Below are positions 9,055 through 19,810 of a stretch of 64,000 bases of DNA, one piece after another (the stretch's first letter is position 1; every line of letters begins with the position of its first letter). The stretch is from Saccharothrix ecbatanensis (lineage in GTDB: Bacteria; Actinomycetota; Actinomycetes; Mycobacteriales; Pseudonocardiaceae). The position numbers and the translations under genes are program-made. Below the pieces are notes generated by a model. That model saw only the letters and a list, made by a program, of their open reading frames with translations, was not told where the DNA came from and ran no database searches. The stretch is from contig NZ_JACHMO010000001.1 in NCBI RefSeq assembly GCF_014205015.1, positions 5,456,001-5,520,000 on the forward strand, in the 5' to 3' direction.

Positions 9055-9174
9055 CGAACACCCCCGATATGTCTTCCGGCGGCATCGTAGCCGGCGGCCG
9101 GGACGACCTGCCGATGCCCCGAGTGAGGTCGACATCACCATGCCCCACCTCGCTCGTTTACGTAGGGTGGCGAA

Positions 9175-9254
9175 GTGTGCGCACACAGTCGAGCACTTCG
9201 GACGATCGGGTTACCTGGGCGCACAAAAGCGCACGCACGGGATACCCTGTGCGC
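9175..9254 (+). promoter_or_regulatory. Promoter/operator region of the RES toxin-antitoxin locus
   Basis: A perfect 12-bp palindrome GTGTGCGCACAC lies at 9175-9186. Further GCGCAC/GTGCGC half-sites occur at about 9220, 9230 and 9250. A TACCCT -10-like hexamer at 9243-9248 is directly followed by the start codon region, so the transcript may be leaderless or nearly so. Repeated half-sites suit autoregulation by the DNA-binding partner encoded downstream; this is inference. Confidence 0.45.
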
Positions 9255-9839
9255 ATGAGTCCCGCGCTGGAGTCGGTGTTGGCCAAGGCAGGCCTCCAGG
9301 TCACCCCGGACGAGTTCCTGTCGCTGGTGGCCGATGCGGCGAAGAAGCTGGCGCCGCCGCACCCCGATCCGGCGAGCTACTTCCCACCGGACCAACGCGA
9401 CGCGCTGGTCGAGGTGGGCCTGGACCTGAGCCCGCACCGCGTCAGCGACGACCAGGGGCGCGCGCGGACCGTGGTGGCGCACGCCGTGCTGCGGGACTCG
9501 GCGCTGACCGTGGCCGAGGCCGCCCGCCAGCTGGGCGTGGACACCAGCCGCATCCGGCACCGGCTGGGCGTCGGCCGCCTGGTCGGCTGGAAGGACCGGG
9601 GCAGCTGGCGGCTGCCCGCCTGGCAGTTCGCCGGCGGTGGCGTGCTGCCGGGGCTGGAGGCCGTGCTGGCCGCCGTGCCCGCGGACCAGCCCGCGCTGGT
9701 GGTGGCCGGGTTCATGACGACCGAGCAGGAGGACCTGTTGGTGGACGGCAAGCCGACGACGCCGCGCGAGTGGCTGCTGGCGGGTGGCGAGCCGCGCCGG
9801 GTGACGGCGCCGGCCGCGCAGCTCGGCACGCCTGCCTGA
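9255..9839 (+). CDS. HTH DNA-binding antitoxin-like protein paired with RES toxin
   Basis: This 194-residue protein has a helix-turn-helix in the middle (about residues 80-105: LTVAEAARQLGVDTSRIRHRL) followed by a W-rich segment (GWKDRGSWRLPAWQF). Its C-terminal part has the TTPREWLLAGGEPRRV pattern, similar to the MbcA/ParS/Xre antitoxin C-terminal region. It precedes a RES-domain gene on the same strand, a combination widespread in actinobacteria and likely to act as antitoxin and autorepressor. The start is ATG 9255, with GTG 9249 in frame just upstream. The 213-nt spacing to the toxin is unusually long for such a pair. Confidence 0.75.
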   Translation: MSPALESVLAKAGLQVTPDEFLSLVADAAKKLAPPHPDPASYFPPDQRDALVEVGLDLSPHRVSDDQGRARTVVAHAVLRDSALTVAEAARQLGVDTSRIRHRLGVGRLVGWKDRGSWRLPAWQFAGGGVLPGLEAVLAAVPADQPALVVAGFMTTEQEDLLVDGKPTTPREWLLAGGEPRRVTAPAAQLGTPA

Positions 9840-10052: not shown

Positions 10053-10709
10053 ATGTCACGGCTTCCCTTGCCGCCCGCTCCCGCTGTGCTCCAGGCGAAC
10101 CTGCGCCGCACCGAGGACGTCGTGGCGGTCCACCGGGCCACCCGCTTGGTGCGCATCTTCGCCGCGAAGGGCCTGCACCCGCAGCGGTGGAACAGCTTCC
10201 GGTACACCGGGCCCCTGCCGCACGCGCGGTTCGACACCCAGCCACCCGGCCCCGACGGGTCGCCCACGCACGCCCACGACCAGGGGGTGCTGTACTTCGG
10301 GCTGTCCGTGCGGACGTCGGTGGCGGAGGTGTACCAGGCGACGTCCGTGGTGGACCGGCGGACGCGCAGCCCGTTCCTGGTGGTGCTGCGCCCCCGGCGG
10401 ACCCTGCGGCTGCTCGACCTGGCCGGGCTGTGGCCGACCAGAGTGGGCGCCTCGCAGGAGATCAGCTCCGGGCCGAAGGCCGTGACGCAGCAGTGGGCGC
10501 GGGCCATCCGGGCGGCCTACCCCGAGTTGGACGGGCTCTGGTACCGGTCGTCGATGGACTCCGGCGATCCCGCCGTGTGCCTGTGGGACCCGCCGGGCGG
10601 CTCCGGGCTGCCCGTCTCACCGGACGTGCTGCTGCCGTTGGAGCACCCGGGCCTGGACCTGCCGCTGGCGCGGGTGTGCGAGGAGCTGAACTACACGCTG
10701 CTCGGGTGA
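10053..10709 (+). CDS. RES-domain protein, probable NAD+-degrading toxin
   Basis: This 218-residue protein carries a RES domain: R28 in VHRATR, RFDTQ, the GVLYFGLSVRTSVAEVYQ core with its conserved Glu, and a WYRSS/CLWD C-terminal strand. Characterised RES toxins (MbcT of Mycobacterium tuberculosis, Pseudomonas RES proteins) degrade NAD+ by phosphorolysis or hydrolysis. The upstream HTH gene is the presumptive antitoxin. The 213 nt between them (9840-10052) is low-complexity, with a tandem repeat TGCCGTCGATGA near 10001-10024, and has no convincing ORF. The ATG at 10053 has only a weak Shine-Dalgarno. Toxic activity is inferred from the family. Confidence 0.82.
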   Translation: MSRLPLPPAPAVLQANLRRTEDVVAVHRATRLVRIFAAKGLHPQRWNSFRYTGPLPHARFDTQPPGPDGSPTHAHDQGVLYFGLSVRTSVAEVYQATSVVDRRTRSPFLVVLRPRRTLRLLDLAGLWPTRVGASQEISSGPKAVTQQWARAIRAAYPELDGLWYRSSMDSGDPAVCLWDPPGGSGLPVSPDVLLPLEHPGLDLPLARVCEELNYTLLG

Positions 10710-12764: not shown

Positions 12765-14675
12765 TCAGACCAAATGGCGGCCCCACCACTTCAACACCGC
12801 GTCGAACCGCTGCTTGCGGTGGCGCGGCTTGCCCGAGCGGGTGAGTTCGTGGCCTTCACCGGGGAACACCAGCATCTCCGCCTCGACGCCGTTGCGGCGC
12901 AGGGCGACGAACATCCGCTGTGCCTGTTCGAGCGGGCAGCGCCAGTCGTGCTCGGAGTGCACCACCATGAACGGCATGGTGATCTTCTCGGCGTAGGTGA
13001 GCGGGCTCATCGCGCGCTGCGCCTCCGGGCTGGGCCCGCAGTAGGCGTCTGCGAAGAACCAGCCGATGTCCGACGACCCGCCGAACGAGTCCCACGCGTT
13101 GACGGCGCGCTCACTCCACGCGGCGCGGAACCGCTCGCCGTGGTGCGCGGCCAGCCATGAGGTCATGAACCCGCCGTACGAACCGCCCATCACGCCCACG
13201 CGGTCGGCGTCGAGGGCCGGGTCCTCCAGCGCGATGTCCAGCACGGCGAGGACGTCGTCCACGTCGACCGTGCCGAACGCGCCGATCACCGACTGGCCGT
13301 GGGCCTGGCCGTACCCGGCAGAGCCGCGCGGGTTGGGCAGCACGACCGCGTACCCGGCCGCGGCGTACACCTGGGCCTCGTCGAAGAAGCCCCAGCCGTG
13401 GTACATGAACGGGCCGCCGTGCACGGCCAGCACCACCGGGTGCGGCCCTTCGCCCTCGGGCAGCACGACCCAGCCGTGCACCGGGTAGCCGTCGGGCGCG
13501 GCGCCGGTCAGCTCCTTGGCCGGTCGCAGCGGCGCCTTCGAGCCGAAGTCGGTCAGCGTGCCGCCGCCCACGAGCACGACCTCGCCGGTGTTGTCCGAAG
13601 TGGACACCACGGCCACGATCCGGTCGCCGTCCGCGGCGAACGACTTCACCTCGGCCCGTTCACCGGCCAGCACTTCCAGGTCGGCCAGCACGGCGTCGTC
13701 GGCGTCCAGCGGCACCCGGCGCAGCTCGATCGCGCCCCGGTTCCGCACCGCCACGAGCACGCCCGCGTCGGTCACCACCGGCGGACCGGCGGCCTTCTCG
13801 CAGTCCACCGTCTCCATGTCGGTGAGCCGGGTGACCCGCTCACCGTCGAACCGCCACAGGCTCATGTTGCGCGCGATGGCGGCCTGGCCAGGCGCCTGCT
13901 CGGGCGAGTAGAACAGCACGCCGCCGTCGGGCAGCGCGACCGGGTACGCGGCCCCGCCCCGGGTGCGCACGACCAGTTCGGGCGTGCCACCGGACGCCGG
14001 TGCGGAGTACACGTCGTTGTTGAACGTCTCGGTCGCGCCGAGGTCTCGTTCGGCCACGAACAGCACCCGCTCGCCGTCCGCCGTCCAGGCCGGATCGACC
14101 GCGGAGAACGTGCCGTCGGTCAGCTCCACCGGCTCGGCGTCCGGGTCCAGCGCGTCCACGGTGAACACCCGCGAGTGCCGGTCGGCGGTGAAGCCGATGT
14201 CGTCCAGCCGGTAGTCGAGCCGGGTGATGTGGCGCGGCGCCTCGGCGTCCGGCGTCGGGGCTTCCTCGCCCTCGGCGACCGGCACGCCGTGACGGCCGGG
14301 CTCGGGCACCCGCGAGGTGAACGCGATCCGCCGCGAGTCCGGCGCCCACACCGGCACGCCCGCGCCCAGCGCCAAGTCGGTGACCCGACGCGCCTCGCCG
14401 CCGTCGGCCGGCATCACGTGCAGCTGCGGCGGCTTGCCACGGGCGGTGACGCGCAGGAACGCGACCCAGCGCCCGTCCGGTGAGATCCGGGGGGCCAGGT
14501 CGCGTTCCGCCCACGTCCAACGACGCGTCCCGCCGCCGTCCGGGGCGACGCGGTGCAGGCCGCCCCGGTAGGCGTTCGCGCTGACGTCCGGGCAGGTCAC
14601 GTCCACCAGGACGAGGTCACCGCGCACCGACACGGAGCCGGGCAGGGTCAGCGATCGCAAGTCATCGGGGCGCAC
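12765..14675 (-). CDS. S9 family (prolyl oligopeptidase-type) serine peptidase
   Basis: This 636-residue cytoplasmic peptidase has an N-terminal beta-propeller with TolB-like/WD40 repeats (about 1-370; ISPDGRWVAFLR, WAPDSRRIAFTS, WTADGERVLFVA) and a C-terminal alpha/beta-hydrolase domain. The catalytic triad is S499 (GGSYGGF), D577 (SEHDW) and H609 (GEGHEL). It would act as an oligopeptidase, dipeptidyl peptidase or acylaminoacyl peptidase on short peptides. The start is GTG 14675. It is separate from the Crp gene (68 bp apart). The substrate preference is not predictable. Confidence 0.92.
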   Translation of the reverse strand: MRPDDLRSLTLPGSVSVRGDLVLVDVTCPDVSANAYRGGLHRVAPDGGGTRRWTWAERDLAPRISPDGRWVAFLRVTARGKPPQLHVMPADGGEARRVTDLALGAGVPVWAPDSRRIAFTSRVPEPGRHGVPVAEGEEAPTPDAEAPRHITRLDYRLDDIGFTADRHSRVFTVDALDPDAEPVELTDGTFSAVDPAWTADGERVLFVAERDLGATETFNNDVYSAPASGGTPELVVRTRGGAAYPVALPDGGVLFYSPEQAPGQAAIARNMSLWRFDGERVTRLTDMETVDCEKAAGPPVVTDAGVLVAVRNRGAIELRRVPLDADDAVLADLEVLAGERAEVKSFAADGDRIVAVVSTSDNTGEVVLVGGGTLTDFGSKAPLRPAKELTGAAPDGYPVHGWVVLPEGEGPHPVVLAVHGGPFMYHGWGFFDEAQVYAAAGYAVVLPNPRGSAGYGQAHGQSVIGAFGTVDVDDVLAVLDIALEDPALDADRVGVMGGSYGGFMTSWLAAHHGERFRAAWSERAVNAWDSFGGSSDIGWFFADAYCGPSPEAQRAMSPLTYAEKITMPFMVVHSEHDWRCPLEQAQRMFVALRRNGVEAEMLVFPGEGHELTRSGKPRHRKQRFDAVLKWWGRHLV

Positions 14676-15890: not shown

Positions 15891-16025
15891 ACAGTCTCAC
15901 GCATGAATGCGGTTTCGCGCCAGCGGAGGTGATCAGACGCACCCGTCCGGGGCCTTCCGAACGACCGTGACGCGCCTGAGGGGCGACCCGCTCGACTGAC
16001 AGCCCGTTCTCAGGCAATCGCGCAT

Positions 16026-18887
16026 ATGGTCAACGCCGTGGCCTCCCTAAACCGCCTCCGCGGTAGGTGGTCGCTCCCCGCGCTCGTCGTGTTGGTCGCC
16101 CTTGTGGGCGCCTTCGTCGTATGGACGCGCCAGGGAGACGACCCCGCCCCGGTGAGCACCCGCGAAGCGGTGATCGACGTGCCGGAAAGTCCGGACAGCG
16201 ACCGCACCGTGCAGATCGACACAACCCTTTACCTGCCCGAACGCACACCCGCGCCCGCCGTGCTGCTGCCGCACGGCTTCGGCGGCAGCAAGGCGAGCGT
16301 CGCGGCCCAGGCGAACGAGCTCGCGCAGCGCGGGTTCGTGGTGCTGGCCTACTCGGCGCGCGGCTTCGGCCGCAGCAGCGGGCAGATCGCGCTGAACTCG
16401 CTGGACCACGAGGTCCGCGACGCGCGGAAGCTGCTCGACTGGCTGGCCACCCGGGAGGAGGTGGTGACCGACGGTGGCGGTGACCCCAAGGTCGGTGTGA
16501 CCGGCGGCTCGTACGGCGGCGCGCTCGCGCTGTCGCTGGCCGGCGTCGACCAGCGGGTGGACACCATCGCGCCCGTCATCACCTGGAACGACCTCGGCCA
16601 GGCGCTGCTGCCGAACTCGGCGAGCGCCGACGGCGTGGCCGGCGAGACCCCGTCACCCGGCGCGTTCGCCGACGACGGCGTGTTCAAGCGGTCGTGGGCG
16701 GGCATCTTCTTCTCCGCCGGCCTGTCCGGCGCGGACACCGCGAACCCGGGCCAGGAGGCCTCCGAGCCCGGTCAGGACGACGACGACGCGGCCCCTGCGG
16801 CCACTGCGGCCACCACGCCGCCCCAGCAACAGGGCGACCCCCGACCGGCAGGTCCGGTCAACGGCGCCTGCGGCCGTTTCCAGGCCGACGTCTGCGCCGC
16901 GTACACCGAGGTCGCCACCACCGGCAAAGCAGGACCGCAGACCCTCGAAATCCTCCGCCGAGCCTCCCCCTCAGCGGTCACGAACAAGATCACCCAGCCG
17001 ACGCTGCTGGTCCAGGGCGAGCAGGACACCCTGTTCGGCTTGGACCAGGCCGACGCCAACGCCCGCGAGATCGCCGCGAACGGCGCGAAGGTCAAGGTCG
17101 TCTGGTACTCCGGCGGCCACGACGGCGGTTCGCCCGGCCCTGAGCTGCGCGGCCAGATCGCCGACTGGATGGCGTTCCACCTGGAAGGCAAGGGCACCGA
17201 TCCCGGCACGGCGTTCGAGTACACGGTCGTCGGAGCGTTCCGCAGCAGCGGGGCGCCGTCCCTGCGCAACGTCGTCGCACCGAGCTACCCCGGCCTCAAC
17301 GGCGCAGCCCGCACCGAGCGCAAGGACATCGAACTCTCCGGCCGCGAGCAGATCGTGGTCAACCCGGCCGGCGGCAACCCGGCGGCGGTGTCCAGCCTGC
17401 CCGGTCTCGGATCGGCATTGGCCGGGTCGAGCTCCTTGTCGTCCAGGCTCTCCCTCGACCTGCCAGGTCAGGCGGCGGTGTTCCAGAGCGAGCCGCAGAC
17501 CGCGCAGACCCTCCTGACCGGCGCGTCCACCGTGAAACTGCGGGTCGCCGCCGTGCCCGGCCAGCCCGTGCCCCCGGAAGGCGCGGTCCTGTTCGTGAAG
17601 CTGTACGACGCGGACGGCAGCGGCGTGCGGACGCTGCCAGGCTCCGCCGTAGCCCCGGTACGCGTGGCCGTGCCCGCCGACGGCACCCCGGTGGACGTCA
17701 CCGTGACCCTGCCCGGCGCGGTGCGCCCGGTCGAAGCGGACCACCGCCTGCAACTCGTCGTGTCGACCACCGACATGGCGTACGCGAACGCGGAGGAGCC
17801 CGCCGCCTACCGCATCTCCCTGGCCGCACCGACCCTGTCGGTCCCGGTGGTCGCAGGCGTGAACGCGACCAGCGACGTGCCCACCGCGGCCCTCTGGGGC
17901 ATCGCGATCGTCCTGGCCATCGTCGTCATCACCGGCGTGGTGGCCTGGTTCCGCCGCAGGCTGACCGCCGACGTCGACCCGGACCTCGAATCCGTGCCAC
18001 TGGTGATCGAGAACCTGACCAAGTCCTACCCCGGTGGTCTGACCGCCGTGAAGGACCTGTCGTTCCGGGTGGAGCACGGCCAGGTACTAGGTCTGCTCGG
18101 CCCGAACGGCGCGGGCAAGACCACCACGCTGCGCATGTTGATGGGCCTGATCCGGCCGACCGAGGGCGGAATCCGCGTGTTCGGCCACCGGGTGAGCCCA
18201 GGCGCACCCGTGCTGTCCCGGATCGGTTCGTTCGTCGAGGGCTCCGGCTTCCTCCCGCACCTCTCCGGCGCCGAGAACCTGAAGCTCTACTGGGCGGCGA
18301 CCGGCCGTCCGCTGGAGCAGGCGCACATCGAAGAGGCCCTGGAGATCGCGGGCCTCGGCAACGCCGTGAACCGCCGGGTGCGCACCTACAGCCAGGGCAT
18401 GAGGCAGCGGCTGGCGATCGCCCAAGCGATGCTCGGCCTGCCTGACCTGCTCGTGCTGGACGAGCCGACCAACGGCCTCGACCCGCCCCAGATCCACCAG
18501 ATGCGCGAGGTCCTGCGCCGTTACGCGGCGGCGGGCCGAACGGTCCTGGTGTCGTCGCACTTGTTGGCAGAGGTCGAGCAGACGTGTTCGCACGTCGTCG
18601 TCATGCACAAGGGCAAGCTCGTGGCGGCCGGTCTGGTCGACGAGATCGCGACGGGCAGCGGCGAGGCGAGCTTCCGAGTCGACCAACCGGACGAAGCGGC
18701 CACCGTCCTACGCAGCCTGTCCGGCGTGCACGACGTGCACGTGGACGGCGAACAGGTCCACGCCAGCCTCAACGGCATGCCACGCGCGACCGCGTTGCAG
18801 GCCCTCGTGGCAGCAGGCGTCGCCGTGGACCAGGCCGGCCCCCGTCGGCGGTTGGAAGACGCGTTCCTCGAGTTGGTGGGCGAATGA
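16026..18887 (+). CDS. Membrane-anchored alpha/beta hydrolase fused to ABC transporter ATPase
   Basis: This 953-residue fusion has an N-terminal signal-anchor (about 15-33), then a serine hydrolase of the Xaa-Pro dipeptidyl-peptidase/CocE type (about 45-400) with S162 (GGSYGG), D334 (GEQDTLFG) and H365 (GGHDGG). A jelly-roll PepX-C-like domain follows (about 420-605), then a second transmembrane helix (about 620-642) and a complete ABC ATPase (about 660-950) with Walker A (GPNGAGKTT), signature YSQGMRQ and Walker B LLVLDEPTNGLD. Topology predicts the hydrolase outside and the ATPase inside. The next gene, overlapping by 4 nt, encodes the permease. The function is probably export coupled to extracytoplasmic peptide or ester cleavage; the substrate is unknown. 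No strong RBS precedes the ATG at 16026; GTG 16038 is an alternative. Confidence 0.85.
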   Translation: MVNAVASLNRLRGRWSLPALVVLVALVGAFVVWTRQGDDPAPVSTREAVIDVPESPDSDRTVQIDTTLYLPERTPAPAVLLPHGFGGSKASVAAQANELAQRGFVVLAYSARGFGRSSGQIALNSLDHEVRDARKLLDWLATREEVVTDGGGDPKVGVTGGSYGGALALSLAGVDQRVDTIAPVITWNDLGQALLPNSASADGVAGETPSPGAFADDGVFKRSWAGIFFSAGLSGADTANPGQEASEPGQDDDDAAPAATAATTPPQQQGDPRPAGPVNGACGRFQADVCAAYTEVATTGKAGPQTLEILRRASPSAVTNKITQPTLLVQGEQDTLFGLDQADANAREIAANGAKVKVVWYSGGHDGGSPGPELRGQIADWMAFHLEGKGTDPGTAFEYTVVGAFRSSGAPSLRNVVAPSYPGLNGAARTERKDIELSGREQIVVNPAGGNPAAVSSLPGLGSALAGSSSLSSRLSLDLPGQAAVFQSEPQTAQTLLTGASTVKLRVAAVPGQPVPPEGAVLFVKLYDADGSGVRTLPGSAVAPVRVAVPADGTPVDVTVTLPGAVRPVEADHRLQLVVSTTDMAYANAEEPAAYRISLAAPTLSVPVVAGVNATSDVPTAALWGIAIVLAIVVITGVVAWFRRRLTADVDPDLESVPLVIENLTKSYPGGLTAVKDLSFRVEHGQVLGLLGPNGAGKTTTLRMLMGLIRPTEGGIRVFGHRVSPGAPVLSRIGSFVEGSGFLPHLSGAENLKLYWAATGRPLEQAHIEEALEIAGLGNAVNRRVRTYSQGMRQRLAIAQAMLGLPDLLVLDEPTNGLDPPQIHQMREVLRRYAAAGRTVLVSSHLLAEVEQTCSHVVVMHKGKLVAAGLVDEIATGSGEASFRVDQPDEAATVLRSLSGVHDVHVDGEQVHASLNGMPRATALQALVAAGVAVDQAGPRRRLEDAFLELVGE

Positions 18888-19810
18888 GCGAGAACGGTGT
18901 ACACACTGATCCGGCCGCGATCTCCGATCTCACGGACGCGGCGGAGGCCGAGCACTCCTCGGTAGCGCCGGACGGCTCGAAGGTCGGCTACCGAGCAGGC
19001 CGAACCCTGCCCGTCCGGGTCGAGCTGATCCGACAACTACGCCGCAGGCGGACGCAGTTGGTGCTGGGTTTCCTGGTGCTGCTGCCGTTCATCCTGGTGG
19101 TGGCGTTCGAGCTGGGGCAGGCGTCGCCGAACCGCCGTGCGGGCGGTTTCGTGGACCTGGCCACGGCCAGCGGCGTCAACTTCGTGATCCTGACGCTGTT
19201 CGTCAGCGGTGGCTTCCTGCTGCCGATGATCGTGGCGTTGTTCTTCGGCGACACGATCGCGTCCGAGGCGTCGTGGTCGTCGTTGAAGTACTTGCTGGCC
19301 GCACCGATCCCCCGCCACCGCCTGCTCCGGCGCAAGGCCCTGGCCTCCGGCTTGATGTCGGTCTTCGCACTGGCACTCCTGCCCGCGATCGCGCTCGGCG
19401 TCGGCGTCATCTGGTACGGCGCGGGAGAAGCAGTCTCACCAACCGGTGAGGCCGCGTCCTTCGGCGCCGGTGTCTACGGCATTGCGCTGGCCGTCGTCTA
19501 CATCTCGATCCACCTGTTCTGGGTGGCAGGCCTGGCGCTGTACCTCTCGGTGTCGACGGACGCGCCCCTCGGCGCGGTCGGCGGCGCGGTGGTGGCGTCG
19601 ATCGTGTCGCAGATCCTCGACCAGATCACGGCGCTGGAGGGCCTGCGGGACTACCTGCCCACGCACTACGCGTTGGCGTGGGTGGACCTGCTGTCGTCCG
19701 ACGTCGACTGGTCGCAGATGGCGAAGGGCACCTTCTCCGCCCTCGCCTTCGGCTCGTTCTTCACCCTGCTGGCAGCCCGCAAGTTCGCCCGCAAGGACAT
19801 CACCAGCTGA
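18884..19810 (+). CDS. ABC-2 type transporter permease
   Basis: This 308-residue membrane protein has a cytoplasmic N-terminal tail of about 60 residues and about six transmembrane helices (first near 60-78). The cytoplasmic loop EASWSSLKYLLAAPIPRHRLLRRK is typical of ABC-2 permeases. The ATG overlaps the upstream TGA (ATGA), so it is translationally coupled to the hydrolase-ABC ATPase fusion and must form its transmembrane partner. A terminator 7 nt after the stop ends this two-gene operon. Confidence 0.9.
   Translation: MSENGVHTDPAAISDLTDAAEAEHSSVAPDGSKVGYRAGRTLPVRVELIRQLRRRRTQLVLGFLVLLPFILVVAFELGQASPNRRAGGFVDLATASGVNFVILTLFVSGGFLLPMIVALFFGDTIASEASWSSLKYLLAAPIPRHRLLRRKALASGLMSVFALALLPAIALGVGVIWYGAGEAVSPTGEAASFGAGVYGIALAVVYISIHLFWVAGLALYLSVSTDAPLGAVGGAVVASIVSQILDQITALEGLRDYLPTHYALAWVDLLSSDVDWSQMAKGTFSALAFGSFFTLLAARKFARKDITS

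What the first reader, a model, noticed from the sequence alone, without database searches (positions are those of the whole stretch)
16026..19810. Extracytoplasmic serine hydrolase covalently joined to a cytoplasmic ABC ATPase
One polypeptide carries a signal-anchor, an Xaa-Pro-peptidase/CocE-like hydrolase with triad S162-D334-H365 and PepX-C-like domain, a second membrane helix, and a full ABC ATPase with intact Walker A, signature and Walker B. An overlapping gene supplies the permease. Peptidase-containing ABC exporters are known with cytoplasmic cysteine peptidases, but here the predicted topology puts a serine hydrolase outside. This would be a machine that exports a molecule and cleaves it on emergence, or that senses processed extracellular products.
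Basis: partly seen in the sequence, partly recalled or inferred. Interest (0 to 1): 0.75.

Follow-up and report, generated by a model that had tools for sequence, protein, structure and literature searches.

The report
Ectohydrolase fused to ABC ATPase
In many actinobacteria one protein carries a lipase-like enzyme that is predicted to lie outside the cell and, through the membrane, the ATP-burning motor of a transporter inside it, which suggests an unstudied machine that moves or presents a molecule and cuts it.

Summary
One uninterrupted gene (16026-18887; start probably GTG 16038) encodes a signal anchor, a lipase/CocE-fold serine hydrolase with jelly-roll domain, a second membrane helix and a complete ABC ATPase; an overlapping gene (18884-19810) encodes the permease. 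It is no artefact: 77 of 80 named loci carry the fusion and the other 3 run off their contigs. In 126 aligned fusions the triad is invariant; 124 have exactly two cysteines in the outer domain, at the same places, two have none, as expected of an extracytoplasmic disulphide. Not supported: a peptidase. The nearest solved structures are a lipase and cocaine esterase. Besides the permease no recurrent partner gene was seen, and neighbours are household genes. New here: the genome's closest paralogue is an operon with the same kind of ATPase and permease but a separate secreted DUF2092/RseB-like protein in the hydrolase's place, which points to lipids. Best explanation: a type V ABC transporter that delivers a lipid or lipid-linked ester to its own tethered ectohydrolase. 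Substrate, direction and coupling are unproven.

The parts
16026..18887 (+). Fused gene: signal anchor - lipase/CocE-fold ectohydrolase - TM2 - ABC ATPase (953 aa from ATG 16026; likely 949 aa from GTG 16038)
   Evidence: start:
16006..16013 (+). Upstream octamer GTTCTCAG (possible -35/operator element)
   Evidence: exact copy near the start in 19 of 29 related loci; function inferred
16025..16030 (+). -10-like hexamer TATGGT overlapping the ATG; suggests a leaderless GTG start at 16038
   Evidence: inference
16071..16127 (+). TM1, residues 16-34, signal anchor, N-terminus inside
   Evidence: hydrophobic in 126/126, net charge higher before than after TM1 in 124/126
16155..17189 (+). alpha/beta hydrolase domain, residues 44-388
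   Evidence: Pfam Peptidase_S15; boundaries from the model; fold of PaL lipase and CocE
16509..16511 (+). Catalytic Ser162 (G-G-S-Y-G)
   Evidence: 126/126
17025..17027 (+). Catalytic Asp334
   Evidence: 126/126
17118..17120 (+). Catalytic His365
   Evidence: 126/126
16869..16871 (+). Cys282, predicted disulphide with Cys290
   Evidence: 124/126; the two others lack both
16893..16895 (+). Cys290
   Evidence: 124/126; the two others lack both
17208..17855 (+). PepX_C/CocE-type jelly-roll domain, residues 395-610
   Evidence: Pfam PepX_C below cut-off; model; structure matches run to residues 609-612
17886..17942 (+). TM2, residues 621-639, followed by RRR
   Evidence: hydrophobic in 126/126; charge rule met in 96/126
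17994..18884 (+). ABC ATPase with C-terminal domain, residues 657-953
18099..18122 (+). Walker A GPNGAGKT
18387..18410 (+). ABC signature region YSQGMRQR
18447..18467 (+). Walker B LLVLDEP with catalytic Glu813
18884..19810 (+). ABC-2/type V permease, 308 aa, overlapping the fusion by ATGA
   Evidence: Pfam ABC2_membrane_2 and _4 above cut-off; NosY/ABCG fold; next to the fusion in 73 of 77 named loci

Best explanation
It is a two-gene ABC machine. Two fusion chains and two permeases (stoichiometry inferred from the fold) would form a type V (ABC-2/ABCG/NosFY-like) transporter whose ATPase chain crosses the membrane twice and carries an ectoenzyme. ATP binding and hydrolysis inside would drive the permease to lift or flip a hydrophobic substrate, most likely a lipid or a lipid-linked ester of the cell envelope, towards the outer leaflet, where the tethered serine hydrolase deacylates it. 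Shown: the single gene, intact catalytic residues in both halves, the permease gene, conservation. Strongly supported: hydrolase outside. Inferred: oligomer, coupling, substrate class, direction.
Against: No substrate, activity or transport is shown by any search. The lipid link is indirect: ATPases close to ABCA and permeases of this fold serve many cargos, and a lipase fold can act on many esters or amides. The TM2 charge rule is met in only 96 of 126. The permease tree agrees less well with the ATPase tree (r 0.34) than with the hydrolase tree (r 0.57), though both exceed all 500 permutations. Lipid binding by the DUF2092/RseB-like protein is recalled from its superfamily, not tested; its best solved relative by sequence is MucB at E 0.29, not significant, and 3 of the 25 genomes have that gene without an adjacent ATPase hit. 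The fusion model has pTM 0.61, so the placing of its domains relative to each other is not reliable.
Confidence: 0.42

Rival explanations
1. Mechanotransmission without transport: ATP cycling moves TM2 and the permease and so switches or positions the ectohydrolase, as in NosDFY or FtsEX; the substrate is already outside.
Against: The permease fold is equally that of true exporters (ABCG2 tied; PmtCD and Rv1217c); sharing a fold shows no mode of action.
Confidence: 0.2
2. Self-protection or detoxification: the ABC unit pulls antimicrobial lipopeptides or other hydrophobic compounds out of the membrane and the hydrolase destroys them.
For: The best NCBIfam ATPase matches, DrrA and lantibiotic protection, are of this kind, though all 25 shown are below their cut-offs; 22 and 10 of 58 permeases weakly match MutE and MutG immunity permeases (best E 3e-05 and 1e-04).
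Against: The hydrolase half matches in 241 of 249 family genomes and in 185 of 199 genomes of another genus, and the pair lies beside uvrB in several families, unlike strain-specific immunity genes.
Confidence: 0.15
3. Peptide exporter with a processing peptidase on the outside.
For: Pfam Peptidase_S15 match; peptidase-containing ABC exporters exist (recalled).
Against: Xaa-Pro peptidase model far below cut-off (39.6 against 642); nearest solved relatives are lipase and esterases; no recurrent third gene (ORFs under 80 aa not examined).
Confidence: 0.08
4. Fusion for co-localisation only: hydrolase and transporter act on different molecules and the fusion just fixes stoichiometry or place.
For: Exported free-standing relatives exist without an ABC partner, so the enzyme does not need one.
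Against: No natural split among the 77 readable named loci, and hydrolase and ATPase evolve together; a mere convenience would be expected to break at times.
Confidence: 0.15

Closest known systems
PaL lipase (PDB 8yzn/8yzo)
   Different: A separate enzyme with no ABC half; 24% identity over the aligned part; its source and function were not read, 'Lipase' is the depositors' name
CocE/NonD family (bacterial cocaine esterase) and S15 Xaa-Pro peptidases
   Same: Fold, Ser-Asp-His triad, C-terminal jelly roll
   Different: CocE_NonD model is below cut-off here (54.2 against 66.3) but above it in three free-standing relatives; Xaa-Pro peptidase model far below
NosDFY ABC complex
   Same: ATPase with C-terminal domain and permease have the NosF and NosY folds; an extracytoplasmic partner works with the ABC unit (recalled)
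   Different: Partner is a separate protein for copper-site assembly (recalled), not a fused hydrolase
Paralogous DUF2092/RseB-like - ATPase - permease operon (this genome, G000:C1:8325760-8328727)
   Same: Best ATPase paralogue (47%) and only other hit of the permease model; same gene order
   Different: Outer partner is a separate secreted protein of the DUF2092/MucB_RseB kind, not a hydrolase
Peptidase-containing ABC transporters (PCAT, C39 peptidase)
   Same: Peptidase or hydrolase and ABC ATPase in one chain
   Different: C39 is a cytoplasmic cysteine peptidase at the N-terminus of a permease-ATPase chain (recalled); here a serine hydrolase, predicted outside, is joined to the ATPase alone
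ABC-2 permease fused to M1 aminopeptidase (TC 3.A.1.145, Myxococcus; PMC3924187, passages seen) and ABC permease/CPBP protease fusion (NCBIfam NF041647, name seen)
   Same: Hydrolase fused to part of an ABC-2 system
   Different: Other enzyme classes, and fused to the permease, not to the ATPase across the membrane

Membership tests
S15 Xaa-Pro dipeptidyl-peptidase | Pfam Peptidase_S15 above gathering score | tested here: met
   71.5 against 23; this Pfam family also holds esterases (PMC11878206, passage)
S15 Xaa-Pro dipeptidyl-peptidase | NCBIfam Xaa-Pro dipeptidyl-peptidase model above cut-off | tested here: not met
   39.6 against 642
S15 Xaa-Pro dipeptidyl-peptidase | Cleavage after X-Pro | not testable with these tools
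   needs enzyme assay
CocE/NonD hydrolase | TIGR00976 above cut-off | tested here: not met
   54.2 against 66.3 for this protein; met by P0121 (77.0), P0139 (115), P0188 (72.2)
CocE/NonD hydrolase | alpha/beta hydrolase plus jelly-roll fold and triad | tested here: met
PaL-type lipase | Fold | tested here: met
PaL-type lipase | Lipase activity | not testable with these tools
   needs enzyme assay
Type V (ABC-2) ABC transporter | Complete ATPase motifs | tested here: met
   Walker A lysine 126/126; signature Ser, Walker B Asp-Glu and H-loop His 125/126, the remaining sequence (L127) being cut by its contig end
Type V (ABC-2) ABC transporter | ABC-2 permease fold | tested here: met
Peptidase-containing ABC transporter (PCAT) | C39 cysteine peptidase domain | tested here: not met
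   no C39 family among Pfam matches at E up to 0.1
Peptidase-containing ABC transporter (PCAT) | Permease and ATPase in one chain | tested here: not met
   permease is a separate gene
NosDFY | NosF/NosY-type ATPase and permease folds | tested here: met
NosDFY | NosD-type partner in the operon | tested here: not met
   no NosD family among Pfam matches of the two proteins; a hydrolase instead
ABC-2/M1-peptidase fusion (TC 3.A.1.145) | M1 metallopeptidase domain fused to permease | tested here: not met
   no M1 family among Pfam matches of the two proteins
Extracytoplasmic hydrolase | Outside location of residues 44-610 | tested here: inconclusive
   sequence evidence strong (TM1 charge rule 124/126, paired Cys, exported relatives) but TM2 rule 96/126 and no experiment

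The most novel reading that the evidence does not exclude
An ancient actinobacterial class of transport-coupled ectolipase: an ABC transporter whose own ATPase chain carries a lipid hydrolase on the other side of the membrane, so that ATP-driven extraction or flipping of an envelope lipid and its deacylation outside are one mechanical cycle; a sister operon with a LolA/RseB-like carrier in the enzyme's place shows a common ABC chassis with exchangeable outer partners for lipid traffic in bacteria of which many lack an outer membrane.
Probability: 0.25. Interest if true: 0.85.

Novelty: new variant of a known kind. Interest (0 to 1): 0.62.

Why it matters
If the coupling is real, this would be the first case known to me in which an ABC ATPase chain carries a working enzyme on the far side of the membrane, so that transport and chemistry on the emerging substrate can be studied in one protein. 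Its hydrolase half is found in nearly all sampled genomes of the window's family and of a genus that I take to be Streptomyces, yet my searches (open-licence papers only) found no study of it. In the window's genome it is present once, so a knock-out should be readable, and the open question of which lipids or esters these bacteria turn over at the outer leaflet becomes directly testable.

Tried and rejected
LipSm-type lipase family, which I recalled as S15-related: the paper (PMC5806266, outline with abstract and passages) shows a GHSQG, CALA-like enzyme, so it was dropped. Locus tags guessed from memory for a Streptomyces homologue (SCO2722-2725): no paper found. A search for the PaL structure paper brought nothing usable (listing only); a search for NosDFY papers one review, not read (listing only).

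Split genes: from the rows printed in the order-wide search with the hydrolase profile (117 of 150 genomes match; this profile also finds free-standing hydrolases), 20 stretches with short frames or in-frame stops, or weak hits, were picked by eye and fetched. In 18 (L218-L234, L236) no related ATPase was found near the hydrolase and they look free-standing; L237, from the window's own genome, is a more distant single hydrolase; L235 (G905) has both halves and the permease but in different frames, without a usable start codon for the ATPase, so it looks like a frameshift, not a natural split. It was described only.

Internal initiation: no excess of start-plus-Shine-Dalgarno-like signals before the ATPase. 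A first conservation count had 5 wrongly chosen ORFs (L016, L018, L025, L027, L028); they were replaced before the count that I cite. A first ORF extraction ignored strand and was redone.

Permease adjacency in the first 41 contexts: 38 hits including the window; L072 is a hydrolase with cell-wall repeats and no ABC half; in L094 and L102 my script picked another frame, so they are unresolved. In the 77 named loci 73 scored; L127 and L149 end at or near the contig edge, L109 has a permease hit further off, L179 scored none.

In the other genus search most printed frames are about 850 codons or more, but a few are shorter (748 and 599 in two fragmented assemblies, 804 in one other); I did not look into these. 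In the family search frames are printed only for the strongest matches, so for the weaker ones the fusion itself was not checked.

Co-occurrence of the fusion with the sister operon was not tabulated because the two order searches print incomplete lists. Other phyla were not searched as such, so absence outside Actinomycetota is not claimed.
Full report
What is there. The ORF 16026-18887 (+) reads through 953 codons; the next gene, 18884-19810, starts in an ATGA overlap. Pfam finds Peptidase_S15 at 62-346 and ABC_tran at 675-816, both well above cut-off, and a PepX_C match just below it; the second protein matches ABC2_membrane_2 and _4 above cut-off. Two hydrophobic segments (16-34 and 621-639) flank the hydrolase part, and the ABC motifs are present. 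The start is probably GTG 16038: the ATG at 16026 is absent in some close relatives and sits in a -10-like hexamer about 7 bases before a GTG that the relatives keep, with an octamer GTTCTCAG upstream that is found exactly in 19 of 29 related loci. This would be a leaderless mRNA (inference).

It is not a sequencing or assembly accident. A protein search scored 7992 candidates, its cap; 120 are listed, and all but one (P0098, a partial protein) show both the S15 and the ABC Pfam domains. They include Saccharothrix, Lentzea, Amycolatopsis, Pseudonocardia, Rhodococcus, Nakamurella, Blastococcus, Geodermatophilus, Actinoplanes, Microbispora, Kitasatospora and Embleya. These 80 were chosen by similarity, so weaker members may be built differently. 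The permease follows in 73 of these 77, 55 times with the same 4-base overlap.

Both halves look functional. Hydrolase and ATPase trees agree (correlation of distances 0.90 against at most 0.26 in 500 permutations; 37 of 70 splits shared, 73 taxa); the permease agrees less (0.57 with the hydrolase, 0.34 with the ATPase; 40 and 39 of 70 splits; permutations at most 0.20 and 0.23). There is no excess of internal start signals.

Topology. TM1 has more positive net charge on its N-terminal side in 124 of 126 and TM2 on its C-terminal side in 96 of 126, so the hydrolase is predicted outside, the ATPase inside. Independent support: residues 40-615 contain exactly two cysteines, C282 and C290, in 124 of 126 sequences, and none in the other two (L026, L028). 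Presence or absence as a pair is what a disulphide predicts, and disulphides as a rule belong outside the cytoplasm. The same pair is kept in 40 of 40 proteins aligned (22 fused, 18 free-standing). Free-standing relatives look exported: of 120 listed, 111 have an N-terminal hydrophobic stretch, 60 a hydrophobic C-terminal tail, 28 a lipobox-like motif and none a Walker A-like motif; 17 carry cell-wall binding repeats. One relative of that kind sits in a genome that also has the fusion (L031 beside L018, both G162). Still, no experiment.

A sister system. In the same genome the best paralogue of the fused ATPase (47% identity; the next has 46%) and the only other hit of the permease model (E 1.5e-44) lie together, and directly upstream is a separate protein of 375 aa with an N-terminal hydrophobic stretch that matches DUF2092 and MucB_RseB above their cut-offs and LolA weakly; among solved structures it has no significant match (MucB at E 0.29). 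The protein is found in 73 of 150 genomes of the order. Of 25 genomes whose locus was fetched, 22 have the ATPase next to it and 21 of these a permease hit too (G416 has none); 3 (G897, G872, G870) have neither. So a related ABC chassis is used with an RseB/LolA-like protein in one operon and with a fused lipase-like hydrolase in the other, in the same gene order. LolA and RseB folds are known to bind acyl chains or lipoproteins (recalled). This is my main reason to expect a lipid or lipid-linked substrate.

Setting. Besides the permease no gene recurs across families. In the window the pair stands between TerC and uvrB, and in the 41 first contexts TerC recurs in 20 and uvrB in 18; uvrB is also near in Rhodococcus, Antrihabitans and Nakamurella; in Geodermatophilaceae and Micromonosporaceae the pair lies near a threonine-synthase-like gene (13 loci), in many also near a GroEL gene (10 loci) (names by reading the sequences, not by a family search, except TerC and uvrB of the window). 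Such old, stable places speak for a household envelope role and against a cargo of one biosynthetic cluster (inference).

Known or new. The parts are known; the join is in the databases under names such as 'alpha/beta fold hydrolase' or 'ABC-2 type transport system ATP-binding protein'. I found no study of it: searches, over open-licence PubMed Central papers only. The inventory of Streptomyces coelicolor transporters (PMC3924187, passages only) mentions an ABC-2 permease fused to an M1 aminopeptidase in Myxococcus; the words hydrolase and esterase do not occur in its main text. The alpha/beta hydrolase survey (PMC11878206, passages only) does not mention the join in the passages seen. I call it a new variant of a known kind: a type V ABC system whose ATPase chain carries an outer enzyme. 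How it works remains inference, at 0.42 for delivery to a tethered ectohydrolase.

Noticed in passing
9069-9836 (+) and 10053-10706 (+): A gene with a weak Rv2175c-type winged-helix match (below cut-off) and a RES-domain gene (PF08808, 59.7 bits against 23.2) resemble a RES toxin-antitoxin pair, yet their relatives recur near the fusion in 18 and 20 of 41 fetched contexts, unusual for a toxin-antitoxin pair.
   Followed up: partly
15960-16040: Promoter-like block before the fusion: in relatives GCTGAGA and GTTCTCAG as an inverted pair, then TAAGGT/TATGGT and a GTG start; may be an operator of an unknown regulator.
   Followed up: partly
G000:C1:8325760-8328727 (-), L002/L190/L191: Operon without a known function here: DUF2092/MucB_RseB-like secreted protein, ABC ATPase, ABC-2 permease; the outer protein is found in 73 of 150 genomes of the order; worth a study of its own.
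   Followed up: partly
L031/L072 (G162:C8): Exported hydrolase of the same family with CWB2 cell-wall binding repeats and no ABC half; 17 such proteins listed.
   Followed up: partly
L026 and L028: Two fusions that lack both outer-domain cysteines; natural disulphide-free variants.
   Followed up: no
12768-14675 (-): Prolyl-oligopeptidase (S9) gene with a propeller-repeat match, on the far side of TerC; relatives recur in 16 of 41 contexts; not part of the operon.
   Followed up: no
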